From assembly GCA_030706605.1 (NCBI GenBank), contig JAUZOE010000021.1, positions 1 to 64,000 on the forward strand: DNA of 64,000 nucleotides. Direction: 5' to 3'. The notes under the pieces are model-generated. The model did no database searches and was not told the origin of the DNA. It saw only the letters and a list, made by a program, of their open reading frames with translations. Of the stretch, positions 12,158 to 29,990 are shown piece by piece (position 1 is the first letter of the stretch; the number at the start of each line of letters is the position of its first letter). A program made the translations under genes and the position numbers. Origin of the DNA: Bacteroidota bacterium. Lineage in GTDB: Bacteria; Bacteroidota; Bacteroidia; Chitinophagales; Chitinophagaceae.

Positions 12158-12208
12158 ATTGGGTTTGGTGTGAGATCAGTGACTAACTAAATATAGGAGA
12201 ATATAAAG

Positions 12209-13267: not shown

Positions 13268-13298
13268 TTAGAAATTAAAAACAAATCTTTTTAAATCT

Positions 13299-14513: not shown

Positions 14514-14606
14514 TGATTCAATAAAAGAGTGAAGATAACTAGCTCGACGATGGTGAATTTTTCTTATGGCTTGTTACTATTAACCTAATACTTAAATTAT
14601 AACGAT

Positions 14607-15653
14607 ATGCAAGAAAACAATTATCCCAAACTACACAATGCAACATGGCCTGGCATTGTTGGAAAAGGGGAAGGTTCAGAACCTGTTATCTCGTTTGATA
14701 CTATGTTGGAGATGACAGCCGCCGCAGAAGTGGACGGAATGAAATTTGATGGAATTGATGTCGGACTTTTCAACCCTCATTTTGATGTAGAAAGTTCTGA
14801 CGATGATATTAAAAAAATCGTAGACAAAGTTGCCTCTTTTGGTCTTGAAATTGGTAGCCTGGTAGCGCCAATATGGCCACCAAGTGGAGGTTCTGCCATG
14901 GGGAGTAAAGAAGAAAGAGACCGTTTTGTAGAAATGGTACGCAAGTCTTGTCGCATTGCAAAAAAATTAAAAGATTTAGGCATCCGCAAAGGCGGTGTAG
15001 TTCGTATTGATTCGGCGACAGATCCGGAAAGCTGGACTAAAGACCCGGTCAATAATACTCAACTCATTGCAGCTACTTTTCGTGAGGCCTGTGATGTAGC
15101 AGCTGATTACGGAGAGAAACTTGCGGCGGAAGGTGAGATATGCTGGGGCGGCATGCATGGCTGGAAAAAAATGATCAATACATTGGAAGCGGTTGACAGA
15201 CCCAATATCGGTTTTCAGGCAGACATGGCCCATACCTTGCTGTATCTTTTGGGGTACAACTGCCCCGAAGACAGGATACTGCCAGCCGATTTTGACTGGA
15301 ACGATAAGGCAACTTTTGAAGAAGCTTTGAAGACATTGACTAATGCCCTACGTCCATGGACTATTGATTTCCATGTTGCGCAAAATGATGCAACGGTACA
15401 TGGCTCTGGTTCGCATGATAAGACTGGCCGTCATTGTCTTGCAACAGATCCGAATGGGAAACTGGATATTGCGAAACATGCGGGTTACTGGTTACGTGAT
15501 GAACAGGGCAAACTCACCAAAGCATTTAGGCATATCTGTTGGGACGGCTGTATGTTTCCTAATGAAGTAATGACACAGGTGCAGACGTGGAACGATATTC
15601 TTTCGGCAATGGTATCAGTTCGTCGCGCACATGGCTGGTATGAAGCAGAATAA
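14607..15653 (+). CDS. Sugar phosphate isomerase/epimerase (xylose-isomerase-like TIM barrel)
   Basis: This 348-aa protein matches the AP-endonuclease-2/xylose-isomerase-like TIM-barrel family. Likely metal-site segments are the [10 protein letters not shown] stretch near residue 173 (Glu), GFQADMAHT near 200 (Asp, His), DFHVAQND near 253 and [11 protein letters not shown]. There is no signal peptide, so it should act in the cytoplasm. Members near Gfo/Idh/MocA enzymes often isomerise, epimerise or dehydrate keto-sugars or inositols. It has 93 nt upstream to the cupin gene and 45 nt to the oxidoreductase downstream, consistent with an operon. Substrate is unknown. Confidence 0.8.
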
Positions 15654-15698
15654 CAAGATTGTAATATTATTCTTCACCGTATTTAACCTGATATTATA

Positions 15699-16850
15699 AT
15701 GACAAAAAAGAAAGAACTAAGAATTGGATTAATCGGATGTGGTTTTATGGGACGTACGCATTCAAATGGTTATAATCGCGTTCCTAATTTTTTCCCGGAG
15801 CTGAAATATCATCCGGTACTAAAAGCAGTTTGTTCCCGTAACGAAGACAAAGTACGTGCCTTCGCCGAACAGTGGGGCTACGAATCTGTGGAGACAGATT
15901 GGAAAAAATTGATTGCCCGTGGTGATATAGATGCTGTAGATATTTGTACTCCCAACAATATGCATGCTGAAATAGCAATAGCAGCCGCCCAGGCAGGTAA
16001 GATGGTGTTGAGTGAAAAACCGCTGGCACGGAACCTGGCCGAAGCTCAGCAAATGGTAGATGCTGTGGAAAAGGCCGGAGTTAATAATACAGTATGGTAC
16101 AATTACAGACGTCTGCCGGCTGTTACTTTGGCTAAACAAATTATTGACTTGGGTAAGCTGGGAAAGATATTTCATTACCGCGCCAACTTCCTTCAGGACT
16201 GGACGATCAGTGCTGATCTGCCACAAGGAGGTGAAGCTCTGTGGCGTCTTGACGCAGATGCAGCTGGTTCCGGTGTTACCGGCGATTTACTGGCTCATTG
16301 CATCGATACAGCCATTTGGCTGAATGGTAGCATTAAAGATGTTTCTGCTATGACGGAAACTTTTATCAAAGAACGTGTACATCAGTTAACAGGGAAAGTG
16401 CAAAAGGTGAGTATTGATGATGCCTGTATTTTTCATTGTCATTTTGCAAACGGTTCGCTGGGATTGTTTGAGTCCACACGGTATGCACGTGGACACAAGG
16501 CTTTGTATACTTTTGAAATCAACGGAGAGCATGCTTCTATTCGCTGGGACCTGCACGACCTGAACCGTCTTGAATATTTTGATCATGCAGATGAATCGAA
16601 AGTACGTGGCTGGCGTTCCATTCATGTAACGGATGGGGATCATCCTTATATGGATAAATGGTGGGTGCCTGGTTTGGGAATTGGCTACGAACATTCATTT
16701 GTACACCAGGTAGCTGATTTTCTAAAAAGCCTCGAAACCGGAGAAATTTGTTCCCCTACTTTCAAGGAAGCTTTTGAAACACAGCAAGTCTGCGAAGCCG
16801 TTCTCGAATCAGCGGCGGCAAAAAGTTGGAAAGATACAGGCGCTGTATAA
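15699..16850 (+). CDS. Gfo/Idh/MocA-family NAD(P)-dependent oxidoreductase
   Basis: This 383-aa enzyme has the N-terminal Rossmann motif GLIGCGFMG (about residues 9-17) and the family catalytic-lysine motif SEKPLA near residue 107. A C-terminal alpha/beta domain carries [19 protein letters not shown], including the Asp/His pair typical of the substrate pocket. It lacks a signal peptide, so it is cytoplasmic; some relatives in Bacteroidota are Tat-exported, and this one is not. It probably oxidises or reduces a sugar or keto-sugar at C3 with NAD(P), working with the TIM-barrel isomerase 45 nt upstream and the DUF1080 hydrolase 95 nt downstream. Confidence 0.9.
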
Positions 16851-16945
16851 AGTTGATCAGAGTTGAGAATATGTTTATAACCAAGATCGGGATTTTTTCT
16901 ATAATAAAATTTAAATAAAAATTGTTTAACTAATCAATTACCATC

Positions 16946-17743
16946 ATGTACAAATCAGTAAAATCTTTCTGGAACATATGTTCTATTTCAATGCTATTGG
17001 CAGTCCTGATCTTAAGCAGTTGCCAATCCTCAGACAATCATCAGGACGGCCAAGCAAAAGTAGCCACAACAGATTCTGCAGGCTTTGTGCCAATATTTGA
17101 TGGAACAACGCTTACGGGCTGGGAAGGAGACACTGCCGTGTGGCACGTAAAAGACGGCGCAATTGTAGGCCAGGTGACTGCTACGTCCACGCCACTTAAA
17201 GCGAATTCTTTCCTGATATGGAAAGGTGGTACACCATCTGATTTTGAACTTACCGGAGAATATGAAATTTCACCAGAAGGTAATAGCGGTATTCAGTATC
17301 GCAGTGAAGAAGTAGAAGGTGTTCCATATGGTTTAAGAGGCTATCAATTTGACATTGATGGAGCCAATACCTATACTGGTCAAAACTATGAAGAGCGTGG
17401 AAGAGACATTATTGCATTTCGTGGGCAGAAAGTAACTCTTCCGGCAGTAACGGAACCCATAGATTCGCTTGCAAAACGTAATGTTTGGTCGGCTTCAGTT
17501 GTAACAGGTTCTTTTGGTAGTGCAGATTCTTTAAAAACATTGATCCATGATGGTTGGAACAACTTCCGCATTGTAGCAAATGGTAATCATTTGCAACATT
17601 ACGTCAATGGTATATTGATGTGTGAAATTACGGATAATGATACTGCCAATCGTAAAGCATCAGGTTTGATTGGTTTGCAAATACATGCAGGCCATATTAT
17701 GAGAGTAGCTTATCGGAATCTTCAGTTTAAAGAAATAAAATAG
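16946..17743 (+). CDS. DUF1080 lipoprotein, 3-keto-disaccharide hydrolase family
   Basis: This 265-aa lipoprotein has a lipobox near Cys26 (LILSSC). One DUF1080 domain (about residues 48-263) starts with FVPIFDGTTLTGWEG and ends in HAGHIMRVAYRNLQF. DUF1080 proteins adopt a concanavalin-like beta-sandwich, and characterised members cleave 3-keto-glycosides. The family motif around GNSGIQYRSE (near residue 112) is present. Lipid anchoring implies action outside the cytoplasm, so its substrate would have to be oxidised there, probably by one of the haem dehydrogenases of this cluster. It is the last gene before a 392-nt gap, so it may end the first transcript of the cluster. Confidence 0.9.
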   Translation: MYKSVKSFWNICSISMLLAVLILSSCQSSDNHQDGQAKVATTDSAGFVPIFDGTTLTGWEGDTAVWHVKDGAIVGQVTATSTPLKANSFLIWKGGTPSDFELTGEYEISPEGNSGIQYRSEEVEGVPYGLRGYQFDIDGANTYTGQNYEERGRDIIAFRGQKVTLPAVTEPIDSLAKRNVWSASVVTGSFGSADSLKTLIHDGWNNFRIVANGNHLQHYVNGILMCEITDNDTANRKASGLIGLQIHAGHIMRVAYRNLQFKEIK

Positions 17744-18135
17744 TATTTCTCTTTGGAAGAAAATTTAAAAATCAATAAACAAAAGTCTAAGTTTTGTTTT
17801 TGTTATAGATTTTGCCTTCATGAATAATACAAAATGGAATGGATTAGATGGTTATAAATAATTTATAAAATTTATTGAGCTTTCATTAAAAAATACATGA
17901 TATATTTGTGTGAACGAATTGCTTTTATCACAACTTTATACAAAAATAAGTAGCCAAAAATGTTTTATGCGGCAGCAGACAATTTACTGACTTCTAAATG
18001 GTCAATAGCCGTCTGTATGTGTCGTCCTTGTGTTTCAGAAAATCTGATTAGGTGCAGTTTGAAAATGAAATAGGAAATTAAAATATAGAAATATTTTATT
18101 CAATTACCATTTTAAATAGTTTTAATAAAACAGTT
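17744..18135. other. 392-nt intergenic region, possible gene remnant
   Basis: No intact gene. A patch at about 17965-18070 is less AT-rich than its surroundings. Its minus strand reads as a plausible C-terminal peptide containing SETQGRHIQTAIDHLEV and ending in KLSAAA at a TAA (17965-17967). It may be a decayed gene end. A -7 promoter match lies at 17901-17908 on the plus strand. Confidence 0.4.
17901..17908 (+). promoter_or_regulatory. Putative -7 promoter element upstream of the MFS gene
   Basis: TATATTTG matches TAnnTTTG. A TTG lies at 17875-17877, 23 nt upstream, slightly wider than usual. If used, it gives a leader of about 220 nt before the MFS start at 18136. Confidence 0.35.
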
Positions 18136-19410
18136 ATGGAAAAAACGATCAAGCCAAACAAATTATTTGTAGCAAGTTGCCTTGCATTATTAGTTACCTC
18201 ATTATCATTTGGGATACGAGCAGGAACAATGAATAACCTGATGGTTCAGTTTCATTTGGACGCAAAACAAATGGGATTAATAGCGGGTACTGCTTTTTGG
18301 GGATTCCCATTGGCAATCATCATCGGAGGGATGATTGTGGATGTTGTGGGAATGAAACGGCTGTTATTGCTGGCTTTTATTCTCCATTTGATTGGGATCA
18401 TATTCACGGTTTTCTCAACAGGTTTTTTCAGTTTGTATATTTCTACACTATTTATAGGTGTAGCCAACGGACTGGTGGAAGCAGCTTGTAATCCCCTGGT
18501 AACCTCTATTTATCCAGAAAATAAAACAACGAAATTAAACCATTTTCATTTTTGGTTTCCGGCCGGGATTGTTATAGGGACGTTGGTTTCATTTGGATTT
18601 GCGAATATAGGTTGGGGCTGGGAATTGCAGGTGGCTACGATGCTGATTCCAACAGTTATCTATGGTTACTTATTTTTTAGACTTGATTTTCCTGTTACAG
18701 AAAGGGTATCTTCAGGAGTATCGACAAAAGAAATGTATAAGGCGATATTAAAGCCACTGTATATATTTTTATTTATCTGTATGTTGGGTACAGCTATTAC
18801 AGAACTTTTTACCAACCAGTGGGTAGGGGTATTACTGCAAAACGTCACCAAAAGTGCCATACTGGTTTTGGCGCTGGTATCTGCGGTACAGGCATTAGCC
18901 CGAAGCGTAGCAGGTCCAGTAGTACACCGGGTATCACCTTCAGGGTTATTATTAATGTCAGCAATTATTTCCACTATTGGAATCTACCTGTTAGGTACTT
19001 TAACGGGCGGGGCTATATTTATTGGAGCAATTATTTTTGGTATTGGCGTAGCCTATTTCTAGCCTACGATGCTTGGTTTTGTATCAGAAAATATTCCCAA
19101 ATCCGGAGCCTTAGGTATTAATTTACTGGGAGGGGCTGGTATGTTTGCTGTATCAATATATATGTTTTTTATGGGCGGGTATTACGATAGTCTCATAGCT
19201 GCGGTTTTGCCAAGCGGGGCTAATATTGACGCTTACCGTTCTGCGGCTCCGGGCACAAGTGAAGCAGCAGCTTATTCTCAAGCGCAACTGGCTGCAGGTC
19301 CACAAGTAATTATGGCTACCAATATCATTCCGTTAGTATTGGTATTTGCCTTTCTTTTTCTATATATTTATCAAAGATCAAGAAAGAAAAAGAGATTGGA
19401 AGTTGCATAA
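18136..19410 (+). pseudogene. MFS sugar transporter interrupted by an in-frame amber codon
   Basis: Two ORFs, 18136-19062 and 19063-19410, lie in one frame and together encode a normal-length (about 424 residues) 12-helix major-facilitator protein. They are separated only by a TAG at 19060-19062 (codon 309). The surrounding peptide reads VAYF-stop-PTMLGFVSEN, where related transporters usually have a Trp, so TGG to TAG is the simplest change. Helices before and after look undamaged, including an N-terminal MFS signature-like segment (GMIVDVVGMKRLLL). TAG also ends other genes here (DUF1080, eboF, T9SS protein), which argues against general recoding. It is the only transporter of the sugar cluster. 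It may be a true pseudogene, a strain polymorphism, a suppressed codon or a sequence error. Confidence 0.88.
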
Positions 19411-19712
19411 TGTGAGTCTATTATAAAAGGATAATCTAATGGACGGATTAAATATCGATTGGGATTGTTAGTAATATTTATGTAAAAAAAAGGATTGTAT
19501 ATACAGGACTTACCAAAATGGATTACTTTGCTAAAGCTAATTATTCTTGTAGAGTATAATAATTTGGTTTTATTTGCCATCGATGTAAATATCGTACCTG
19601 AACAATACTAACGAATTATATAATAAGAGTTCAGGAGCATATAGAATATGCTCCTGAACTGGTTTTTAAGATTGCTGAGTTTACTTAATAAATTAATACT
19701 AAATAATAAACA
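19411..19712. other. 302-nt intergenic region after the MFS gene
   Basis: No gene is seen. It contains the strong terminator at 19628-19667, which separates the MFS transcript from the ThuA and second dehydrogenase genes. Those two genes must therefore have their own promoter or rely on read-through; no TAnnTTTG match lies between 19667 and 19713. Confidence 0.6.
19628..19667 (+). terminator. Rho-independent terminator after the MFS gene
   Basis: A perfect 15-bp stem (arms 19628-19642 and 19646-19660, core TTCAGGAGCAT) with a 3-nt loop is followed by GGTTTTT. It lies 218 nt after the MFS stop. Confidence 0.85.
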
Positions 19713-20498
19713 ATGAGAAATAAAACAAAAAACAACAGTTTTCATAATTTTCCCCTGTTATTAACACTTGTGGCTTTATTTTCCTTCTGTGTAAGTCCTG
19801 TTTTGGCAAAACCAAAACCTAAAGTACTGGTCTTTTCCAAAACTGCCGGCTATCATCACCAGTCAATTGCTAACGGTATAGTAGCCATACAAAAATTGGG
19901 GGCTGAAAATAATTTTGAAGTAGACACGACTATTGATGCTGAAAAATTTACTTATGAAAATTTGAAACAATATAAAGCAGTAATATTTTTAAGTACCACA
20001 GGAGATGTATTAAACGATGAACAGGAAAAGGCATTCAAAAAATATATTGAATCAGGAGGCGGCTTCATGGGAATTCATGCTGCTACAGATTGTGAATATA
20101 ATTGGCCATGGTATGGCAACCTGGTAGGGGCTTATTTTGGAGGGCATCCTGCACAACAGGTTGCTAAATTAAATATTGTGGATCAAAAAAATATTTCTAC
20201 CAAACATTTACCAAACCCATGGATACGGAAAGATGAATGGTATAGTTTCAAATGGATGGCAAAAGGTCTTCATGTGTTGATTACCATTGATGAAAAGAGC
20301 TATGATCTTGGAACACATCCTCCAATGGGGTATCATCCAATGGCCTGGTATCATGAATATGACGGAGGCAGGGCATTTTATACAGAATTAGGTCATGTAG
20401 AAGAATCTTTTTCGGATCCTCTTTACCTGAGACATATCCTTGGGGGGATAGAATATGCTATGGGAACAAAGCATTATGGAAAGCTTAAAGTTAATTAA
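19713..20498 (+). CDS. Secreted ThuA-domain protein
   Basis: This 261-aa protein has an N-terminal signal peptide (hydrophobic core LLLTLVALFSFCV, cut near residue 32 after VLA). A single ThuA domain follows: KVLVFSKTAGYHH, VIFLSTTGD, GGGFMGIHAATD near residue 123, GGHP, and late HPMAWYHEY and GHVEESF. ThuA is a class-I glutamine-amidotransferase-like fold named from trehalose utilisation; its reaction is not settled, though links to keto-sugar metabolism recur. Secretion here puts it in the same compartment as DUF1080 and the haem proteins. The next gene starts 41 nt downstream, so they are probably co-transcribed. Confidence 0.88.
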   Translation: MRNKTKNNSFHNFPLLLTLVALFSFCVSPVLAKPKPKVLVFSKTAGYHHQSIANGIVAIQKLGAENNFEVDTTIDAEKFTYENLKQYKAVIFLSTTGDVLNDEQEKAFKKYIESGGGFMGIHAATDCEYNWPWYGNLVGAYFGGHPAQQVAKLNIVDQKNISTKHLPNPWIRKDEWYSFKWMAKGLHVLITIDEKSYDLGTHPPMGYHPMAWYHEYDGGRAFYTELGHVEESFSDPLYLRHILGGIEYAMGTKHYGKLKVN

Positions 20499-20539
20499 GG
20501 TAAAAAAATAACTACATACACAATCGATAATTAATTCAA

Positions 20540-22780
20540 ATGAAACTTAAATTGAATGTTATAATTCTGGTGACTTTAACAATGGTGATCTTTTCATGTG
20601 TTAACCAGGAGAATAGCCAAAAACCAGAATTTAATCCACATCCATCCCCAGCTTATTTATCGCCTGAAGAAAGCCTGAAAACTATGTACCTTCCTAAAGG
20701 CTATCATATGGAATTAGTGGCAAGCGAACCTATGATTAAAGATCCGGTAGCTATTACATGGGATGGTAATGGAAGAATGTATGTGGCTGAAATGCTTACT
20801 TACATGGAAGATGCTGATGCAACTGGCGAACGACTCCCATGGAGCCGGATTATGCTACTTGAAGATACTAATAATGATGGCAAAATGGACAAGAGCTCGG
20901 TATTCGTTGATAGTCTTTTATTGCCAAGAATGATGCAAAGTGTAGGGAATGAATTATTAGTAAATGAAACCAATTCAATAACGATAACCAGTTATTCTGA
21001 TACAAACGGTGATGGTAAAGCAGATTTAAAAAAGATCCTTTATAAGGATGACAAATACGTTCCCAGCGATGAGAATATGGAACATCAGCGAAGTGGGCTC
21101 GATTGGAACCTGGACAACTGGATGTATATGACTTATGAACCAGTGCGTTTCAGGTATACTAACGGGATCATGCAGGTAGATACTATTCCCAGTGGAGTTG
21201 GTGGTCAGTGGGGTTTAACGCATGATAATTACGGACGTTTATTTTTTTCCAGCGCTGGTGGCGAGACGCCGGTATTAGGTTTTCAGATTAATCCCATTTA
21301 TGGGAGACTTGATTTTGATGATGAATTCAATCCTGAGTTTCAGCAGGTGTGGCCTATCATTGCAACTCCAGATGTTCAGGGAGGTAATGCCAGGTTAAGG
21401 CCCAATAATACACTAAATCATTTTACCGCTTCATGTGGGCAGTCCATATACAGGGGTGATGGATTTCCAAAGGATTTTGTTGGCGATTACCTCGTGTGTG
21501 AACCTGTAGGAAGAATAGTCCGAAGGGCAAAAGTCTTTGATGTTAACGGAAAAACTTTTCTTAAAAACGCCTACGACAGTTCAGAGTTTATATCTTCTTC
21601 AGATATGAATTTTCGCCCTATAAATAGTGCCACGGGGCCAGATGGCGATCTATATATTGTGGACATGTACCATGGAATTATTCAACAAGGTAATTGGACA
21701 AAACCTGGGTCTTTTCTCCGAAATAAAATAGATAGTCTGGGTCTTGCTAAAAATATAGGACGTGGCCGCATCTACCGGGTTGTTTACGACGGAATTAAGA
21801 GAGGACCTAAGCCTAATATGCTAAACGAACCTACTACAACCCTTCTGAATTATCTGGGGCACCCTAATGGCTGGTGGCGGGATAATGCACAAAAACTGAT
21901 TATTACCCGTGGAGACCAATCGGTAGTTCCTGCACTGAAATCAATTGCTACGGGACAAAAAGGAGTTTCAGGAAATGATACCAGTCACCTGGCACGCATA
22001 CACGCTTTGTGGACATTAGAGGGATTGAATTCGATTGATAAAGGAACTCTTTTACATGCATTGAATGATCCGAATCCACAGGTAAGAAGAACTGCCGTGT
22101 GGATCAGTGAGGCATTCCTAAAGAAAAATGATAGCCAGATGGTAGATGAGGTTGCAAAACTTAAAGATGATCCAAGTTATGATGTTCGTGTACAGGTGCT
22201 ACTATCGATGTATAGCAGCAAATCAGACAAGGCTAAAGCTATCGTTAATGAAATAGTAAATGAAAATAAGAATAATGAAATGTTGGTAGCTACCAAGGAA
22301 GCTCTTGATAAAAACGAAATGGTAAGGGAACTTTCTGGCAGACTGGGAAGCATGGATCAGAAGGACAGAAGAACGATCCTTGGCGGAGCTATGATATTCA
22401 GATCACTATGTGCTAATTGCCATGGCGTGGATGGAAAGGGATTAGCAATTGGTAGCACGGGCATGGCTGCTCCACCACTTGTTGGAGCCAATCCATTACA
22501 ATTTTCAGAAAAAAATACAGCAATCAGGATACTATTGGGTGGGTTAACCGGCCCCGTAGAAGGAAAAAAATACCCAAGTGAGATGCCTTCGATGGCCGCA
22601 AATAGTAATGGCTGGATTGCTAATGTGCTAAGTTATGCCCGATATGAATTTGGCAATAAGTCCGGGCAAAAAAGTACTCTTTCTCCCGTTGTAAAATCGG
22701 ATGAGATAAAAATGATAAGGGAAGAAATTAAAGATAGGAATAAGCCATGGACGTTAGATGAACTTAAAAAAGTAAAGTAA
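20540..22780 (+). CDS. Second lipoprotein dehydrogenase-like propeller with HEAT-like repeats and c-haem domain
   Basis: This 746-aa protein is a shorter paralogue of 9458-12157. The lipobox is near Cys21 (VIFSC). The PVC-type dehydrogenase propeller spans about residues 45-420, with DTNNDGKMD and DTNGDGKAD loops that may bind calcium. HEAT-like repeats (about 430-600, for example DPNPQVRRTAVW) follow, then a single c-type haem site, LCANCHGVDGKG, near residue 624 with a downstream Met-containing segment. It should sit on the periplasmic side or cell surface and pass electrons from substrate oxidation. Pairing with ThuA is common for this architecture. A 21-bp palindrome about 80 nt downstream ends the cluster. 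Confidence 0.82.
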   Translation: MKLKLNVIILVTLTMVIFSCVNQENSQKPEFNPHPSPAYLSPEESLKTMYLPKGYHMELVASEPMIKDPVAITWDGNGRMYVAEMLTYMEDADATGERLPWSRIMLLEDTNNDGKMDKSSVFVDSLLLPRMMQSVGNELLVNETNSITITSYSDTNGDGKADLKKILYKDDKYVPSDENMEHQRSGLDWNLDNWMYMTYEPVRFRYTNGIMQVDTIPSGVGGQWGLTHDNYGRLFFSSAGGETPVLGFQINPIYGRLDFDDEFNPEFQQVWPIIATPDVQGGNARLRPNNTLNHFTASCGQSIYRGDGFPKDFVGDYLVCEPVGRIVRRAKVFDVNGKTFLKNAYDSSEFISSSDMNFRPINSATGPDGDLYIVDMYHGIIQQGNWTKPGSFLRNKIDSLGLAKNIGRGRIYRVVYDGIKRGPKPNMLNEPTTTLLNYLGHPNGWWRDNAQKLIITRGDQSVVPALKSIATGQKGVSGNDTSHLARIHALWTLEGLNSIDKGTLLHALNDPNPQVRRTAVWISEAFLKKNDSQMVDEVAKLKDDPSYDVRVQVLLSMYSSKSDKAKAIVNEIVNENKNNEMLVATKEALDKNEMVRELSGRLGSMDQKDRRTILGGAMIFRSLCANCHGVDGKGLAIGSTGMAAPPLVGANPLQFSEKNTAIRILLGGLTGPVEGKKYPSEMPSMAANSNGWIANVLSYARYEFGNKSGQKSTLSPVVKSDEIKMIREEIKDRNKPWTLDELKKVK

Positions 22781-22860: not shown

Positions 22861-22906
22861 AATTAATAAAAAGAATTGAGTAAACACTCAATTCTTTTTA
22901 TTAATT
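22861..22906 (+). terminator. Perfect 21-bp palindromic hairpin, probable bidirectional terminator
   Basis: Arms 22861-22881 and 22886-22906 are perfect reverse complements (core AAAAAGAATTGAGT) around a 4-nt loop. The right arm carries TTTTTATTAATT and the left arm is A-rich, so it can work on either strand. It sits 80 nt after the second dehydrogenase and just before the ebo promoter. Confidence 0.75.
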
Positions 22907-22948: not shown

Positions 22949-23314
22949 ATGTTACTAATTATTTTAAATGCTTTTTTTTGTCTTGCATTTGCAGCATTTG
23001 CTTATGTGAATTTAAATGATAAAGATGCCTGGCTATGGGTCAGTATTTATATGGTGGCTTCGGTTTGCTGTGGCCTGGTAGTTTTTGGGAAATATTATCC
23101 AGTTGTATACCTTATCGCCATTGCCTTTTATCTTATATATGCAATCATATTATTTTTTACAAAAGATGGTGTTTGGGATTGGATAACAAAGTATAAAAAA
23201 GAAAGTATTGTACAAAGTATGCAGGCAACTAAGCCTTATATAGAGCAGACGAGAGAATTTTTTGGATTGCTTATTATCAGTGCTGCTTTGGCAATTAATT
23301 ATTTTGCAGCTTAA
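22949..23314 (+). CDS. TMEM220-family small membrane protein
   Basis: This 121-aa, strongly hydrophobic protein has four predicted membrane helices (about residues 1-18, 26-45, 47-67 and 100-120) and a polar loop between helices 3 and 4. The segment AYVNLNDKDAWLWVSIYM resembles the TMEM220 family, which has no known function. It lies directly behind the putative ebo promoter, and eboA begins 11 nt after its stop. It is therefore probably the first gene of the ebo transcript and a candidate extra component. Assignment to TMEM220 rests on pattern recognition. Confidence 0.7.
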   Translation: MLLIILNAFFCLAFAAFAYVNLNDKDAWLWVSIYMVASVCCGLVVFGKYYPVVYLIAIAFYLIYAIILFFTKDGVWDWITKYKKESIVQSMQATKPYIEQTREFFGLLIISAALAINYFAA

Positions 23315-23325
23315 TAATTGTTGTA

Positions 23326-24210
23326 GTGAAAAATGAAATTTATTCATATGATATAGAGGAGTTAAAAAAATTATTATTAGCTCTTATAAAGCAAAACCTT
23401 GAACAGGCTAATTATTTTTGGCTTGAAGAAAAATCAGGTATTGTTAGTTCAGAAAATAATAGTTCTCAATTGAATCTCTCTTTTGTAGCTATTCCCCGAA
23501 AAACCGGGAAACAAATAATTACTTTAACTCCTGTTCAAAAGGAACATGTCAACTCTATTCTTCCTGGATTTTCTGTTAATAACTGGCCTTTGCACAGGCT
23601 ATGCAGGATTTGGATATTACTCCATGTGAATGCCGGCGAAAAAGATAAATATTATAATAAAATTGACGCCCTTTTTAAAAACGCGGAGATGAATGAATTA
23701 GCAGATCTTTATTCTGCTTTACCATTATTTGCTTATCCGGAAATATGGACAAAACGTTGTGCGGAAGGTATAAGAAGTAATATAGGCATAGTGCTCGACG
23801 CAATTATGTATGATAATCCTTATCCCTCAAAATACCTAGTCGAGTCAGCCTGGAACCAACTGGTATTGAAAGCTTTTTTTACAGAAAAAGATGTTAATCG
23901 CATTTTTGGATTAGATGAAAGATCAAATCCAAAATTAGCATCAACACTTATTGATTACGCCCATGAGCGTTGGGCTGCTAACCGTATTGTTAATGTTCAG
24001 CTTTGGAGACTAGTGGGTAAGTTCATTGATGAAACTAATTTCCCTGACATTCAAAAAGTATTTGCTTCCGGTGATATTAAATCAAGGAAAGCCATAGCGC
24101 TAACCTGTGCCCAAAGCGATTATGAACAAGCTAAAAATTTATTGGATACCGTGCAAGAACTTAAAACTGAAATAAGAGAAAATAAATTAAATTGGATAAA
24201 TCTAAACTAA
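23326..24210 (+). CDS. eboA: EboA-domain protein
   Basis: This 294-aa soluble protein matches EboA, the first protein of ebo clusters. The gene order behind it (TatD hydrolase, UbiA, dehydroquinate-synthase-like, TIM barrel, phosphodiesterase) fixes the identity. It is mostly helical, with conserved-looking patches DLYSALPLFAYPE, RCAEGIRSNIG and DNPYPSKYL; the catalytic role is unknown. The GTG start at 23326 lies 11 nt after the TMEM220 stop. No signal peptide is present. Ebo proteins are linked to export or processing of secondary metabolites; in cyanobacteria they help a scytonemin precursor reach the periplasm. Confidence 0.85.
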   Translation: MKNEIYSYDIEELKKLLLALIKQNLEQANYFWLEEKSGIVSSENNSSQLNLSFVAIPRKTGKQIITLTPVQKEHVNSILPGFSVNNWPLHRLCRIWILLHVNAGEKDKYYNKIDALFKNAEMNELADLYSALPLFAYPEIWTKRCAEGIRSNIGIVLDAIMYDNPYPSKYLVESAWNQLVLKAFFTEKDVNRIFGLDERSNPKLASTLIDYAHERWAANRIVNVQLWRLVGKFIDETNFPDIQKVFASGDIKSRKAIALTCAQSDYEQAKNLLDTVQELKTEIRENKLNWINLN

Positions 24211-24301
24211 TGAATGGATAATTTTTTTAGCATAACCATTAAGTACAATATTTATTTTTTAAGATAATATCTGCAATAATTATTAATCCAGAATCGAATA
24301 T

Positions 24302-25288
24302 ATGTGCTGCAATAACCTTATAAATGAAAATGAGAACCATTTGAAAGAGGCCATTCCTGTTGATCTCCAAAATATTCGTGGAATGAAATTTTTTGACCCT
24401 CATGTTCACATGACAAGTCGAACCACCGATGATTACCAGGCAATGGCGGATGCGGGAGTAATAGCACTTATTGAACCTGCTTTTTGGCTCGGACAACCAC
24501 GTACCGGACTTGACACTTTCAGAGATTACTACAGCAGTTTAATTGGATGGGAGCGTTTTCGTTCTTCGCAATTTGGCATTAAACATTACTGTACTATCGG
24601 CTTAAATTCAAGGGAAGCTAATAATGAATCACTTGCTGAACAGGTGATGGAAATACTTCCCATGTTTATTTATAAAGAAGGTGTCGTAGGAGTAGGCGAA
24701 ATTGGTTTTGATGACCAAACAGCGCTTGAAGAGAAATATTATCGCCAGCAGTTGATTCTTGCAAAGGAAGCTGGTTTGCCGGTTCAGATTCATACCCCTC
24801 ATCGTGATAAGAAAAAAGGCACTCAATTAAGTATGGATATTGCTTTGGAACATGGGCTCGATCCATATATGGTGATTGTTGATCACAATAATGAGGAAAC
24901 AGTTAAAGATGTATTAGATAAAGGCTTTTGGGCAGCATTTACTATTTATCCTTTTACCAAAATGGGGAACGAACGCATGGTGGAAATTGTTAAACAATAT
25001 GGAACTGAAAGGATAATGATCAATTCCGCGGCAGACTGGGGAATTAGCGATCCCTTGGCTGTACCAAAAACTGCGTCTCTTATGAAGCTACGTGGTATTA
25101 GTGACGAGGATATACAATTAGTCACCTATAGGAATGCTATTACAGCTTTTGGGCAGAGTGGGCAAATAAATGAGACAGATTTCGGTAATTCCAAAAATAT
25201 AGATCAGTCTGAAAAATTTGAAGGCAATACCATACTTCGTGGTGGCCAGCAACCACGGATCGACTCATCTTCTATCATCATCAGTTAA
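24302..25288 (+). CDS. eboB: EboB, TatD-like metal-dependent hydrolase
   Basis: This 328-aa amidohydrolase-fold protein has the TatD metal-site order: DPHVHM (His34, His36), GEIGFD near residue 138 (Glu), QIHTPH near 162 (His) and VDHNNE near 197 (His), with NSAADWG near 241 carrying the late Asp. It likely hydrolyses a small metabolite in the ebo pathway rather than DNA. The first 27 residues before MKFFDPHVHM are poorly conserved in appearance, and a later start at Met28 is possible. There is a 91-nt gap after eboA and 9 nt to the next gene. Confidence 0.88.
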   Translation: MCCNNLINENENHLKEAIPVDLQNIRGMKFFDPHVHMTSRTTDDYQAMADAGVIALIEPAFWLGQPRTGLDTFRDYYSSLIGWERFRSSQFGIKHYCTIGLNSREANNESLAEQVMEILPMFIYKEGVVGVGEIGFDDQTALEEKYYRQQLILAKEAGLPVQIHTPHRDKKKGTQLSMDIALEHGLDPYMVIVDHNNEETVKDVLDKGFWAAFTIYPFTKMGNERMVEIVKQYGTERIMINSAADWGISDPLAVPKTASLMKLRGISDEDIQLVTYRNAITAFGQSGQINETDFGNSKNIDQSEKFEGNTILRGGQQPRIDSSSIIIS

Positions 25289-25297
25289 TGAATCCTC

Positions 25298-26188
25298 TTG
25301 AAAAAAACTATTGCGTATTTCAAATTGATGAGGCCGGCAAATATTGTAACCTCAATAGCTGATGTACTTGCCGGAGTTGCAATTTCAGGATTTTTTATGA
25401 AGTCAGGTTTATTGGTTGATCAGATTTTATCAATTATTTTGTTGTGCATTTCAACAATAGGGCTTTATGGTGGAGGTGTGGTCTTTAATGATGTGTTTGA
25501 TGCAGAGTTAGATAAAATAGAAAGACCTGAGCGGCCCATTCCTATGGGAATTATTACTGTAAAAGAAGGTACTTTATTTGCGATTTTCTTATTGCTTTTG
25601 GGTATCGCGGCTGCCTTTATAGTAAACCCGGTTTCCGGTATTTTGTCAATTAGTATTGCTATTTCTGCAATTGTTTATGATAAATGGGGAAAACACCATC
25701 CTTTTCTAGGACCGGTGAATATGGGATTGTGTCGTGGCCTTAATCTTCTATTGGGTATAAGTATTTTAGCTATTCAACTTAATCAATATTGGTATGTGGC
25801 TATTATTCCTATAATTTATATAGCTTCTATTACAATGGTTAGCAGGGGAGAAGTGCATGGGGGGAAAAGTAAAACACTTTATTTTGCGGGGTTTCTTTAT
25901 ATTCTGGTTGCTGGTTCTATTTTTATTATTTCCTTTTATAATAAAAACAAAATACTCACTTTGATCTTCTTATTACCTTTTTTATGGATGATTTTTACTC
26001 CTTTATTTAAAGCAATTCATCAACCGATAGGAAAAAATATTGGTAAAGCGGTTAAAGCCGGAGTTATTGCTTTAATATTACTTAATGCTTCATGGGCAGC
26101 AGCATTCGGTTCAATGTGGGTAGCTTTATTAATAGTGCTTTTATTGCCTTTATCTTTGTACCTGGCAAAGAAATTTGCTGTAACATGA
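25298..26188 (+). CDS. eboC: EboC, UbiA-family prenyltransferase
   Basis: This 296-aa integral membrane protein has about eight to nine helices and the first UbiA Asp-rich motif NDVFDAELD at residues 64-72. A second, less canonical region lies around YDKWGKHHPFLG near residue 127. It should transfer a prenyl or related isoprenoid chain to an unknown acceptor made by the ebo enzymes. The start is TTG at 25298, 9 nt after the eboB stop; the next in-frame ATG (25328) would begin at MRPANIV and remove the residues that normally precede this motif. The ATG at 25288 is in another frame and soon hits a stop. Confidence 0.88.
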   Translation: MKKTIAYFKLMRPANIVTSIADVLAGVAISGFFMKSGLLVDQILSIILLCISTIGLYGGGVVFNDVFDAELDKIERPERPIPMGIITVKEGTLFAIFLLLLGIAAAFIVNPVSGILSISIAISAIVYDKWGKHHPFLGPVNMGLCRGLNLLLGISILAIQLNQYWYVAIIPIIYIASITMVSRGEVHGGKSKTLYFAGFLYILVAGSIFIISFYNKNKILTLIFLLPFLWMIFTPLFKAIHQPIGKNIGKAVKAGVIALILLNASWAAAFGSMWVALLIVLLLPLSLYLAKKFAVT

Positions 26189-26240
26189 AGAAGGAATCAA
26201 GTTGGTTTAAAAATTATCAGCCAGCTTTAAAATTATATTT

Positions 26241-27392
26241 ATGGATTATATAGAACAGGAATTTAGTGTAAAGTTTGATTACAGAGTTTATTTCACTACC
26301 GCACTTTTTAATCTTTCAAATACAATTTTAGATGATTTTTTTTGTAAAAAAAAATCATCATCGTCTCAAAAAATATTTTTTGTAATCGATCAGAATGTTG
26401 TTGAGACTCATCCTTATCTAATCGAAGAAATTTCTTCTTATTTTAAAAAATATCAAACGGTTCATTTAATTGAAGACATATTAATAATGCCTGGTGGGGA
26501 AGTGGCAAAAAATGATCTTACCTTATTTAATAAAATTCTAAATGCAGTCAATTTTTATAATATTGACAGGCATTCTTACATAGCTGGAATTGGCGGAGGT
26601 TCAGTGCTCGATGTTGTAGGATATGCTGCTGCGGTATCTCACAGAGGTATCAGGCATATCAGAATTCCTACTACTACTTTATCTCAAAATGACTCAGGGG
26701 TAGGGGTAAAGAATAGTATTAATTACTTTAATAAAAAAAATTTTTTAGGCACATTTGCGCCTCCTGTTGCTGTAATTAATGATGAGCAGTTTTTGAAAAC
26801 ACTATCTGATCGCGATTGGCGTTCAGGGATTGCAGAAGCGGTTAAAGTAGCTTTAATAAAGGATGCTACATTTTTTGATTGGATTGAAAATAATGCAGAT
26901 CAATTAGTCGCCCGAAATATGAATTCCATGAATTTTCTTGTAAGGCGATGTGCTGAACTTCATCTTGAGCATATCGCCGGTGGAGATCCTTTTGAAATGG
27001 GTTCTTCACGACCGTTGGACTTTGGCCATTGGAGTGCTCATAAATTAGAACAACTTACTAATTTTGAAATATTGCATGGCGAGGCAGTAGCAATGGGTAT
27101 TGCACTAGATAGCATGTATTCATTTCTTTCCGGCAGATTAACTGAAGAGAAAGCAGAAAGAATTATTAAATTACTGGTTCAGTTAGGCTTTGAAATTTCT
27201 CATCCTTTTATGGAAATTAAAGAAGGTAGTGATATTTTATTGGGATTAGATGAATTCAGGGAACACCTTGGTGGCAATTTAACTATTATGCTGTTGCGCG
27301 ATATAGGAATTGGAGAAGAAGTGCACGAAATAGATATTCCATTACTGATCAAAGCATCACAACAACTAAAGACTTATTCAGAGAAAAAATAA
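26241..27392 (+). CDS. eboD: EboD, 3-dehydroquinate-synthase-like sugar phosphate cyclase
   Basis: This 383-aa protein has the sugar-phosphate-cyclase fold. The NAD site GGGSVLDVVGY lies near residue 118 and is followed by RIPTTTLSQNDSGVGVKNS. The three metal ligands expected for dehydroquinate synthases are all present: Glu199 (GIAEAVK), His263 (FGHWSAH) and His279 (HGEAVAMG). The catalytic core therefore looks intact, although the substrate is probably not DAHP because ebo members form a separate branch. The surrounding NFLGTFAPP segment differs from shikimate-pathway enzymes. It starts 52 nt after eboC and ends 17 nt before eboE. Confidence 0.9.
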   Translation: MDYIEQEFSVKFDYRVYFTTALFNLSNTILDDFFCKKKSSSSQKIFFVIDQNVVETHPYLIEEISSYFKKYQTVHLIEDILIMPGGEVAKNDLTLFNKILNAVNFYNIDRHSYIAGIGGGSVLDVVGYAAAVSHRGIRHIRIPTTTLSQNDSGVGVKNSINYFNKKNFLGTFAPPVAVINDEQFLKTLSDRDWRSGIAEAVKVALIKDATFFDWIENNADQLVARNMNSMNFLVRRCAELHLEHIAGGDPFEMGSSRPLDFGHWSAHKLEQLTNFEILHGEAVAMGIALDSMYSFLSGRLTEEKAERIIKLLVQLGFEISHPFMEIKEGSDILLGLDEFREHLGGNLTIMLLRDIGIGEEVHEIDIPLLIKASQQLKTYSEKK

Positions 27393-27409
27393 ATTTATAA
27401 TTAGATAAT

Positions 27410-28615
27410 ATGCTCACTAATTCCGGTCATTTAACTTACTGTACAAATATTCACAGCGGTGAAAACTGGAAAGATCATTTCAATGAAATAAAAATAAATT
27501 TTCCAGGAATAAAACAAAAACTTTCGCCTGGTAAATCCATGGGAATAGGTTTGCGCTTATCAAATATTGCAAGTGTTGACCTTCTTGAAGAAGAAAATTT
27601 GGAAGTGTTTAAAAACTGGCTTCATGAAAACGATGCTTATGTATTTACAATGAATGGGTTTCCATATGGCAGTTTTCATGATGCTCGTGTAAAAGACCAG
27701 GTACATGCTCCCGACTGGACTACCCAGGAAAGAGTAGCATATACTATTAGATTATTTCAAATTTTAAAAGACCTTATACCGGCAGATTCAGAAGGGAGTA
27801 TTTCCACTTCACCATTGACTTACAGGCATTGGTTTAAACAAGGGGGTGGTTTAAAAAATGCAAGGGAATTAGCGACTGATAATATGGTGCTTGTTGTAGA
27901 AAATCTTATAGAAATTCATCAATCAACCGGGAAAGTTTTACATCTTGATATTGAACCAGAACCTGACGGAATGCTTGAAACTGGAAACGAATTTATTCAT
28001 TGGTTTAAGAATGATTTGCTTGTTAGGGGAGCAAAAAAAATAGCTGCTAAATTTGATGTAACTCTATCAAAGGCAGAAGAATTATTGAAAGAGCATGTAA
28101 GATTGTGTTATGATGTATGCCACTTTGCTATTGGCTATGAGCCTCACGAGGAAATTATCCATGAGGTTTTAGAATCGGGGATAAAGATTGGTAAATTACA
28201 AATAAGCGCAGCACTTAAAGGAGCAATGGACAAAGACATTTTGTTGAGGCAAAATATAAAAGAAAGCTTTTCGGGGTATAATGAACCAACTTACCTGCAC
28301 CAGGTAGTTGCCAAAAAAAATAATGGTGAATTATTGAGGTATCCGGATCTTCCGGAAGCTTTGTCGGATTATGATAATCTTGAGGTAAATGAATGGCGTG
28401 CCCATTTTCATGTGCCTATTTTTGAAGAAATATTTGGATCATTGCAATCGACACAAAAAGATATTGAAGAAGTACTACGGTTACAAAAGAAATTTAATTT
28501 TACCAATCATCTTGAAGTGGAAACATATACCTGGGAAGTTCTTCCCGATTATATGAAATTACCAATCCAGGAGTCTGTTATAAGGGAGTTGCAATGGGTA
28601 GTGCCGCATTTATAA
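27410..28615 (+). CDS. eboE: EboE, metabolite traffic TIM-barrel protein
   Basis: This 401-aa cytoplasmic protein is recognised as EboE from its position and from the xylose-isomerase-like TIM-barrel layout: HLDIEPEPDGMLE near residue 184, CYDVCHFAIGYE near 237 and the C-terminal HLEVETYTWEVLPDYM segment. These Glu, Asp and His residues fit a divalent metal site. The exact reaction is unknown. It lies 17 nt after eboD and 25 nt before eboF on the same strand, so translation is probably linked. Confidence 0.87.
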   Translation: MLTNSGHLTYCTNIHSGENWKDHFNEIKINFPGIKQKLSPGKSMGIGLRLSNIASVDLLEEENLEVFKNWLHENDAYVFTMNGFPYGSFHDARVKDQVHAPDWTTQERVAYTIRLFQILKDLIPADSEGSISTSPLTYRHWFKQGGGLKNARELATDNMVLVVENLIEIHQSTGKVLHLDIEPEPDGMLETGNEFIHWFKNDLLVRGAKKIAAKFDVTLSKAEELLKEHVRLCYDVCHFAIGYEPHEEIIHEVLESGIKIGKLQISAALKGAMDKDILLRQNIKESFSGYNEPTYLHQVVAKKNNGELLRYPDLPEALSDYDNLEVNEWRAHFHVPIFEEIFGSLQSTQKDIEEVLRLQKKFNFTNHLEVETYTWEVLPDYMKLPIQESVIRELQWVVPHL

Positions 28616-28640
28616 AGAACAATAAACAGAATTAACGTTC

Positions 28641-29990
28641 ATGAATAAAACAGTTGTAATTGATGTAGTGGCACTTTCTTCTTTTTTGACTGGAGAAATG
28701 CCCTTTCTGACAAATTATATTGCCAAAAATAATTTGTCTTCGATTGACCCAATGCTTCCTGCAGTAACTACGGCCGTTCAGTCAACCTATCTTACAGGGA
28801 AATGGCCTTCTGAACATGGCATCGTAGGTAATGGATGGTATGATAGGGAAGATTGTGAAGTGAAATTCTGGAAGCAATCGAATCATTTGGTATTAGCCGA
28901 AAAAATATGGGAGAAAGCAAAAAAACAAGATGCTTCGTTCACCTGTTCGCAAATGTTTTGGTGGTACAATATGTATTCTTCTGCAGATTATTCTGTGACG
29001 CCAAGGCCGCAATATCTGGCCGATGGTCGCAAACTTCCTGATTGCTATTCACACCCGGCAGAATTACGCGATGAATTGCAAAATAAATTGGGCCAATTTC
29101 CTTTGTTTCAATTTTGGGGACCAGGTGCCAATATAAAATCTACTCAATGGATTGCGGCCGCTTCTATGCTAACGGATGATCGTTATGATCCCACACTCAC
29201 ATTAATATATTTACCTCATCTGGATTATTGTCTCCAAAAATTTGGCCCTGATTTTTCGAAAATCAAACCTGAATTGCTGGAAATTGATAAAGTTATTGAG
29301 CAACTGGTTACTTTTTATGAAAAGAAAAATGCAAAAATTATTATTCTTTCTGAATATGGTATTGCACCCGTTAGTAAACCTATTCATCTAAATAGATTAT
29401 TAAGAGAAGAAGGGTTGTTACAGGTGCGCGTTGAACGTGGATTAGAATTATTAGATGCAGGTGCTTCCAAAGCTTTTGCAGTTGCTGATCATCAGGTAGC
29501 TCACGTATATGTAAATGACGTTTCAGTAATGTCCCAGGTAAGAAGTTTGCTGGAGAAAGTTCCAGGTGTAGAATTAATTCTTGATAAAAACGCCCAGGCG
29601 AAATATCATATTGACCATACAAGAAGTGGAGATTTTGTATTGATGGCTGATTCAGAAAGCTGGTTCACTTATTATTTCTGGCTGGATGATGCAAAAGCTC
29701 CCGATTATGCAAGATGCGTTGACATTCATAAAAAGCCAGGTTATGATCCGGTTGAGATGTTTATGACTTCAAAGTTGCGTGCAGGATATAAACTGTTACG
29801 AAAAAAAGCAGGCTTTAGATATGTGATGGATGTGATACCTCTTGATGCTACCTTGATCAAAGGTTCTCATGGAAGAATTGGCGTTTCTTCAGAATTTTCT
29901 CCTATCCTAATTACTGATCATAAACTTCAACAAAATAGCATAAATGCTATTGATGTTTTTGATATAATCTATGACCAAATCTTTCAGTAG
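28641..29990 (+). CDS. eboF: EboF, alkaline-phosphatase-family phosphodiesterase/nucleotide pyrophosphatase
   Basis: This 449-aa protein belongs to the type I phosphodiesterase/nucleotide pyrophosphatase fold. The probable nucleophile Thr is in VTTAVQSTYLTG near residue 48. Metal-ligand candidates are LPHLDY near residue 193, LSEYG near 236, AVADHQVAHV near 281 and SHGRIG near 414. There is no signal peptide, which is typical of Ebo members and implies cytoplasmic action. It is the last ebo gene and ends in TAG. The next gene is convergent 78 nt away, with only a weak hairpin between them. Confidence 0.85.
   Translation: MNKTVVIDVVALSSFLTGEMPFLTNYIAKNNLSSIDPMLPAVTTAVQSTYLTGKWPSEHGIVGNGWYDREDCEVKFWKQSNHLVLAEKIWEKAKKQDASFTCSQMFWWYNMYSSADYSVTPRPQYLADGRKLPDCYSHPAELRDELQNKLGQFPLFQFWGPGANIKSTQWIAAASMLTDDRYDPTLTLIYLPHLDYCLQKFGPDFSKIKPELLEIDKVIEQLVTFYEKKNAKIIILSEYGIAPVSKPIHLNRLLREEGLLQVRVERGLELLDAGASKAFAVADHQVAHVYVNDVSVMSQVRSLLEKVPGVELILDKNAQAKYHIDHTRSGDFVLMADSESWFTYYFWLDDAKAPDYARCVDIHKKPGYDPVEMFMTSKLRAGYKLLRKKAGFRYVMDVIPLDATLIKGSHGRIGVSSEFSPILITDHKLQQNSINAIDVFDIIYDQIFQ

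What the first reader, a model, noticed from the sequence alone, without database searches (positions are those of the whole stretch)
23326..29990. Complete ebo operon of unknown product
Six genes in the order eboA, TatD-like, UbiA, dehydroquinate-synthase-like, TIM barrel and phosphodiesterase match the ebo cluster known from cyanobacteria (where it aids scytonemin), Bacteroidota and eustigmatophyte plastids. All reading frames look intact, with key motifs in at least four enzymes. The metabolite made here, probably a prenylated cyclitol-like compound judging from UbiA plus sugar-phosphate cyclase, is unidentified.
Basis: partly seen in the sequence, partly recalled or inferred. Interest (0 to 1): 0.8.

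Follow-up and report, generated by a model that had tools for sequence, protein, structure and literature searches.

The report
Known ebo operon with membrane-protein partner
This is an intact copy of a gene cluster already known from many bacteria and some algal chloroplasts, whose product is still unknown; the useful addition is that in this phylum the cluster is often accompanied by one small membrane-protein gene that could help explain what it does.

Summary
eboA-F lie at 23326-29990, six open frames in the canonical ABCDEF order, in a Ferruginibacter-like Bacteroidota genome. The cluster, this order and the isoprenoid-cyclitol guess were published in 2016 (PMC5133447). It is a new member of a known kind.

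Added here: (1) A small membrane-protein gene (TMEM220 family, PF15071) ends 11 bp before eboA. The family is present in 39 of 114 ebo loci, within 600 bp of an ebo gene in 38 of them, and in 24 of 31 ebo-positive against 25 of 364 ebo-negative Bacteroidota genomes. Of 25 ebo-positive Bacteroidota without a linked copy that were searched, 23 have it elsewhere. (2) EboF lacks three canonical phosphodiesterase metal ligands in 102 of 102 sequences. (3) EboD's pocket residues differ from dehydroquinate synthase and from two sedoheptulose-7-phosphate cyclases. (4) EboC keeps one of two Asp-rich motifs. (5) EboA is all-helical with no significant PDB match.

Most likely the operon makes a membrane-associated prenylated cyclitol that helps a small molecule cross the membrane; this is inferred. 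Substrate and product remain unknown.

The parts
22862..22905 (+). terminator-like hairpin (20 pairs, AT-rich) between the upstream ThuA/PVC-cytochrome genes and the ebo transcription unit
   Evidence: sequence; fold -20.7 kcal/mol, z -10.06, 0 of 200 shuffles as good. The pattern scan did not list it, and I did not find out why
22949..23314 (+). TMEM220-family (PF15071) small membrane protein, 121 aa; proposed first gene of the operon
   Evidence: Pfam 94.1 bits, cut-off 27; ends 11 bp before eboA; recurrent near ebo; co-occurrence; hydropathy segments consistent with about four helices
23326..24210 (+). eboA (GTG start), EboA-domain protein, all-helical
   Evidence: NF035938 166.5 bits, cut-off 50; AlphaFold pLDDT 95.5; best PDB match E 0.44
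24302..25288 (+). eboB, TatD-like metal-dependent hydrolase with six ligand positions intact
   Evidence: PF01026 60 bits; nearest solved structure AF_1765, 3guw, E 6e-20; H34 H36 E133 H164 H195 D245 in 103 of 103
25298..26188 (+). eboC (TTG start), UbiA-superfamily membrane prenyltransferase
   Evidence: NF035940 409 bits; NDxxDxxxD in 106 of 106; nearest solved structure by sequence DGGGP synthase 6m31
26241..27392 (+). eboD, sugar-phosphate-cyclase superfamily, not AroB
   Evidence: NF004852 568 bits; AroB model TIGR01357 219, below its cut-off 305; residue fingerprint; a separate AroB-like gene at G000:C71
27410..28615 (+). eboE, xylose-isomerase-like TIM barrel
   Evidence: NF035939 489 bits; AlphaFold pLDDT 93; Foldseek best E 6.4e-7, sugar isomerases and epimerases
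28641..29990 (+). eboF, alkaline-phosphatase-like fold protein with an altered metal site
   Evidence: PF01663 204 bits; DYxxQ and SEYG in place of DYxxH and ADHG

Best explanation
The locus is an intact ebo operon of Bacteroidota type, led by a TMEM220 membrane-protein gene and probably transcribed as one seven-gene unit. Shown by sequence: gene identity, order, conserved residues, a terminator-like hairpin in front, and a strong recurring link between TMEM220 and ebo in this phylum. Inferred: EboD closes a sugar phosphate into a cyclitol by the chemistry of its superfamily, on a substrate that is neither that of dehydroquinate synthase nor clearly sedoheptulose 7-phosphate; EboE (sugar isomerase/epimerase/dehydratase type) and EboB (metal hydrolase type) modify it; EboC prenylates it at the membrane; EboA is a helical scaffold; EboF binds a phosphorylated compound but is not an ordinary two-metal phosphodiesterase; TMEM220 is a membrane partner. 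The prenylated product acts as an accessory lipid that lets a small molecule cross the inner membrane, as ebo mutants of Nostoc suggest.
For: Identity and order. TMEM220: in 39 of 114 ebo loci, within 600 bp of an ebo gene in 38 of these, in several arrangements; the most widespread flanking cluster in 80 named loci, 31 loci and 17 genus labels against 10 loci and 6 labels for the next; 24 of 31 ebo+ against 25 of 364 ebo- genomes, Fisher p 6e-19, Mantel-Haenszel by family p 2e-9 from hand-made counts; 23 of 25 searched ebo+ Bacteroidota genomes without a linked copy have one elsewhere. Residues. Folds. Export role: in Nostoc each of five in-frame ebo deletions (eboD not among them) leaves the scytonemin monomer in the cytoplasm (PMC6282210, discussion part 1 and passages).
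Against: No product is known. The only enzyme assay of EboC orthologues I found shows farnesylation of 8-hydroxyquinoline-2-carboxylic acid, an aromatic (PMC9235831). TMEM220 is absent from the two cyanobacterial ebo genomes searched, from 7 of 31 ebo+ genomes of the phylum sample and from two Flavobacterium, so it is not obligatory; it also occurs in 25 ebo-negative genomes. Genome size was not modelled. Transcription as one unit is inferred from spacing and the hairpin only; no promoter was established (26 matches against 31.7 expected).
Confidence: 0.5

Rival explanations
1. The ebo operon makes a free secondary metabolite (antimicrobial, repellent or protectant), not a transport helper; EboC prenylates a small aromatic or cyclitol that is itself the active compound.
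For: EboC orthologues farnesylate quinolines in vitro (PMC9235831); the EDB cluster of Pseudomonas fluorescens NZI7 contains ebo genes and its mutants are eaten by C. elegans (as told in PMC6282210); the 2016 proposal.
Against: In Nostoc the five tested deletions all pile up one and the same scytonemin intermediate, in the cytoplasm. The Pseudomonas repellent was not found in supernatant.
Confidence: 0.3
2. TMEM220 is only a lineage marker of large-genome Bacteroidota and has no functional tie to ebo.
For: 17 of the 24 ebo+ TMEM220+ genomes of the phylum sample carry it away from ebo; neighbours of TMEM220 away from ebo vary (18 places).
Against: The association survives stratifying by family. 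Linkage recurs in different arrangements: before eboA, divergent from eboA, beside eboF and before eboE.
Confidence: 0.2
3. EboD is a redundant dehydroquinate synthase that feeds aromatic synthesis, so the operon is aromatic metabolism rather than a cyclitol pathway.
For: Nearest solved structures by sequence are dehydroquinate synthases; NCBIfam NF004852 and annotators use that name.
Against: The AroB model is not reached (219 against 305); the positions matching the dehydroquinate-synthase Lys250 and Asn268 (numbering recalled) are His and Asp in 93 of 93, while the genome's other AroB-like gene has Lys and Asn there.
Confidence: 0.05

Closest known systems
ebo operon (eustigmatophyte and bacterial operon), ABCDEF type of Bacteroidota, Cyanobacteria and Leptospira (PMC5133447)
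   Same: all six genes, same order, same strand, same families
   Different: led by a TMEM220 gene that the main text does not mention (supplements not seen); the EboF and EboD residue features are shared by the other orthologues examined here, so they belong to the family, not to this copy
ebo cluster of Nostoc punctiforme (scytonemin monomer export, PMC6282210)
   Same: EboA, B, C, E and F families
   Different: no TMEM220 in the two other cyanobacterial ebo genomes searched; scytonemin genes were not searched for in this genome
Ubi-297 prenyltransferases of Maribacter, Zobellia and Algoriphagus (PMC9235831)
   Same: described there as homologues of the ebo-cluster UbiA protein, EboC
   Different: assayed on test acceptors; the natural acceptor is not known for either
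SCO3242 family prenyltransferase (NCBIfam NF045897)
   Same: UbiA superfamily, second-best family match of EboC
   Different: 135 bits against a cut-off of 260, not a member

Membership tests
ebo operon, ABCDEF type | eboA to eboF in this order on one strand | tested here: met
ebo operon, ABCDEF type | EboC and EboE pass their curated family cut-offs | tested here: met
   409 against 250 and 489 against 250 bits
ebo operon, ABCDEF type | EboA passes curated models | tested here: inconclusive
   domain model passed (166.5 against 50), narrower family model not (224 against 320)
ebo operon, ABCDEF type | makes or moves a metabolite | not testable with these tools
   needs mutants and mass spectrometry
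dehydroquinate synthase (AroB) | AroB equivalog model reached | tested here: not met
   TIGR01357 219 against 305 bits
sugar phosphate cyclase superfamily | zinc ligands and catalytic Asp, Lys, Asn, Glu, Lys (identities recalled) | tested here: met
   E199, H263, H279, K157, N167 and K202 in 93 of 93, D151 in 92 of 93
sedoheptulose 7-phosphate cyclases (EEVS, DDGS) | Pro in place of the second His of GHxxxH, as in the two annotated comparators | tested here: not met
   H267 in 93 of 93; comparators L165 and L166 have P; only two comparators, annotated rather than assayed, L166 read as DDGS from its methyltransferase neighbour
UbiA superfamily | first Asp-rich motif NDxxDxxxD | tested here: met
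   106 of 106
UbiA superfamily | second Asp-rich motif | tested here: not met
   D-F-E-D-M-E-G-D of 6m31 aligns with the profile residues r-g-E-v-h-G-g-s; E185 in 106 of 106; one comparator
type I phosphodiesterase PF01663 | Pfam gathering score | tested here: met
   204 against 23 bits
type I phosphodiesterase PF01663 | metal ligands DxxxH and DH (identities recalled) | tested here: not met
   Q199 in 102 of 102, E238 in 101 of 102, Y239 in 102 of 102; three own-genome paralogues keep DxxxH and ADHG
TatD-type metallohydrolases | six metal ligand positions (identities recalled) | tested here: met
   103 of 103; the TatD subfamily model is not reached, 39.5 against 206
TMEM220 (PF15071) | Pfam gathering score | tested here: met
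   94.1 against 27 bits

The most novel reading that the evidence does not exclude
In Bacteroidota the ebo system has a seventh component, the TMEM220 protein: a small membrane partner that works with EboC in making or moving the ebo lipid. EboF is a phosphodiesterase-fold protein rebuilt for a different reaction or for binding. If so, the function of a membrane-protein family that also exists in humans, where TMEM220 is reported at the Golgi in glycoprotein secretion (PMC6979480, passages), becomes testable in a bacterium.
Probability: 0.5. Interest if true: 0.6.

Novelty: new member of a known kind. Interest (0 to 1): 0.42.

Why it matters
ebo genes are spread over many phyla and some plastids, and nothing I saw in the papers names their product. 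A co-inherited membrane partner, a short list of family-wide residue changes (EboF metal site, EboD pocket, EboC second motif) and an alternative partner pair in other bacteria turn a vague 'unknown metabolite' into gene-by-gene tests.

Tried and rejected
ThuA/PVC-cytochrome genes as ebo partners: they lie just upstream in the window, but only 12 of 114 ebo loci have a BLAST match above 55 bits to either, ThuA is not general in relatives (9 of 25 genomes), and a terminator-like hairpin separates them in the window. Their overlap with TMEM220-bearing loci (8 of the 12; p 0.02, uncorrected) is weak.

EboD as an EEVS-type cyclase by a C-terminal 'FREHLGG' motif: I expected this from memory; the comparison showed that neither S7P cyclase comparator has it, so the idea was dropped. 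A search with the C-terminal 100 residues against PDB sequences found nothing useful. I could not print the alignment to ValA (4p53), which ranked sixth.

Empty-site test: the gene downstream of eboF (PMT_2) was found in 11 of 20 genomes of the genus, the window's own included; in the other ten neither tgt nor eboF matched within the fetched locus of about 1.5 kb on each side, less at contig ends, so no empty site could be named.

EboA fold: 367 Foldseek matches with E up to 10, best 0.44; the hits are assorted, mostly helical-repeat proteins and were not used.

First attempt to extract the own AroB-like gene read the wrong strand; redone. The pattern scan for terminators did not list the hairpin at 22862-22905; I rest on its fold.
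Full report
Observation. The window holds six intact ORFs at 23326-29990 on the + strand. Family scans name them EboA, a TatD-like protein (EboB), EboC, a sugar-phosphate cyclase (EboD), EboE and a PF01663 protein (EboF). The window lies in an assembly of 4.27 Mb, 99.67% complete. The order ABCDEF is the ancestral one in Bacteroidetes and Cyanobacteria according to PMC5133447 (section 3.2, part 1 of 2 read).

Distribution. EboC passes its cut-off in 4 of 59 relatives (2 of the 20 genomes of the genus, the window's own included) and in 31 of 395 genomes drawn from the phylum. The operon is thus patchy even within the genus. In the other ebo-bearing genome of the genus (G006, L052) the same seven genes were found, but of seven window proteins searched, six of them from the flanks, only eboF matched that locus, so the flanks differ. 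ebo genes also occur on plasmids of Aureibacter, Deinococcus, Roseivivax, Azospirillum and Mycetohabitans.

A seventh gene. An ORF of 121 aa at 22949-23314 ends 11 bp before eboA and belongs to the TMEM220 family (94.1 bits against a cut-off of 27). A hairpin of 20 pairs with a 4-base loop (22862-22905), AT-rich and with a run of T in its 3' arm, lies between it and the upstream PVC-type cytochrome gene (-20.7 kcal/mol, z -10). The simple terminator scan did not list it. So the ebo unit most likely starts with TMEM220. No promoter was established (26 matches against 31.7 expected).

In 80 named ebo loci the TMEM220 cluster is the most widespread flanking cluster, with 31 loci and 17 genus labels; the next has 10 loci and 6 labels. 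With a profile built from the BLAST-found members, 39 of 114 ebo loci (window, 33 unnamed, 80 named) have one. Arrangement of the 39, tallied by me: 24 before eboA on the same strand, 5 divergent from eboA, 8 beside eboF (7 same strand, 1 opposite), 1 before eboE, 1 at 2.2 kb from eboF.

Genome-wide, TMEM220 occurs over its cut-off in 49 of 395 phylum genomes: 24 of 31 ebo+ and 25 of 364 ebo- (overlap tallied by hand; Fisher p 6e-19). Stratified over ten families with hand-made counts, the Mantel-Haenszel odds ratio is 61 and p is 2e-9; three families in which every genome has both genes drop out, and 26 genomes without a match were not listed, so the ebo-/TMEM220- counts may be slightly low. 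In 17 of the 24 the gene is not beside ebo. In relatives all 4 ebo+ genomes have it, among 9 of 59. Of 49 named ebo loci without a copy in the fetched stretch I gave 27 to a whole-genome search: 23 of 25 Bacteroidota have one elsewhere (some may lie just outside the fetched stretch), the exceptions being two Flavobacterium; both cyanobacteria lack it. Away from ebo its neighbours vary (18 places read, 20 neighbouring proteins scanned). Genome size was not modelled.

Residues. EboB keeps six metal ligand positions in 103 of 103 sequences. EboC keeps NDxxDxxxD in 106 of 106, but where DGGGP synthase 6m31 has DFEDMEGD the EboC profile has rgEvhGgs, with only the Glu shared. EboD keeps the superfamily's catalytic residues; the positions aligned with the AroB Lys and Asn of the substrate site are His241 and Asp260, and His267 stays where the two S7P cyclases (Streptomyces clavuligerus L165, Nostoc HK-01 L166) have Pro, in 93 of 93. 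Residue numbers and roles of dehydroquinate synthase are recalled. This weakens, but does not exclude, the published guess of sedoheptulose 7-phosphate: only two comparators were used and they are annotated or inferred, not assayed. EboF: the PhnA alignment places Q199 on the His of DxxxH and E238-Y239 on Asp-His. Three full-length paralogues in the same genome keep DxxxH and ADHG (L174-L176); four further, more distant ones aligned there could not be judged, and one more (L180) gave no ORF. Q199 is in 102 of 102, E238 in 101, Y239 in 102; the first Asp is D in 72, N in 29, S in 1. The text on EboF in PMC5133447 (section 3.4.3) calls it a putative hydrolase and does not discuss these residues. 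The counts include the window and the twice-seen genomes, and leave out proteins outside the score and length limits set there.

Folds. EboA is predicted with pLDDT 95.5 as an all-helical protein; its best PDB match has E 0.44. EboE is a TIM barrel (pLDDT 93) matching sugar isomerases and epimerases, among them UlaE, IolI and the dehydroshikimate dehydratase AsbF (86 matches at E up to 0.001). VIA-align was not available.

Function. From papers: each of five in-frame ebo deletions in Nostoc (eboD not among them) leaves the scytonemin monomer in the cytoplasm (PMC6282210, discussion part 1 and passages). ebo genes lie in the EDB cluster of Pseudomonas fluorescens NZI7, whose mutants are eaten by C. 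elegans (same paper; the original is not held). EboC orthologues farnesylate quinolines (PMC9235831, results part 1 and passages). I therefore favour an accessory prenylated cyclitol that helps a small molecule cross the membrane, with TMEM220 as a membrane partner in this phylum. All of this beyond gene identity and association is inference.

Another partner set. A PF12902 ferritin-like gene plus a roughly 600-aa gene of no known Pfam family stands upstream of eboA in two Flavobacterium loci, in G221 (3 of the 114 loci) and on the Aureibacter plasmid, and upstream of eboD on the Mycetohabitans megaplasmid. The two Flavobacterium genomes and G221 lack TMEM220; the other two genomes were not searched. 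The ferritin-like family is common on plasmids without reference to ebo (169 records). From memory, VioB of violacein synthesis carries a similar domain; this was not tested. It hints that different modules plug into ebo.

Literature. Searches for ebo terms gave listings in which I saw no paper naming an ebo product; I opened parts of four ebo papers. 100 papers hold TMEM220, 15 were listed; none holds both TMEM220 and 'operon'. The main texts of three ebo papers hold no TMEM220. The library covers only open licences and supplements were not seen, so this is not proof of absence.

Noticed in passing
window 9458-22780: A run of sugar or cyclitol catabolism genes lies upstream: cytochrome c protein, DUF4432, a protein with no Pfam match, xylose-isomerase-like TIM barrel, Gfo/Idh/MocA dehydrogenase, 3-keto-disaccharide hydrolase, MFS, ThuA and a PVC-type heme protein.
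   Followed up: partly
L146:2798-5639, L158:3162-6128, L063:12264-15361, L168:2227-5287, L172:4421-7439: A ferritin-like PF12902 gene plus a roughly 600-aa unknown gene sits next to ebo genes in five records of four genera; three of these genomes were searched and lack TMEM220. Mycetohabitans also has a tryptophan 7-halogenase nearby.
   Followed up: partly
L205:658-4526, L206:400-4198, L208:270-4141, L114:952-5143, L117:1034-5229: TMEM220 lies next to a large ThuA protein (1138 aa in L205, L206 and L208; the L206 copy scanned as ThuA plus glucose/sorbosone dehydrogenase plus cytochrome c) in some Chitinophagaceae and Fibrella; possibly a second role of TMEM220.
   Followed up: partly
L077:10473-13628: In G382 a 1051-aa ThuA-like protein is inserted between eboB and eboC.
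   Followed up: no
L055, L067, L068, L069, L083: eboC without the full set: L055 shows only eboA-C in about 20 kb, and four genomes of one family (f71) show eboC alone in about 20 kb.
   Followed up: no
L066, L070, L072, L079, L080, L082, L084: In family f43 the cluster is split into divergent eboABC and eboDEF arms.
   Followed up: no
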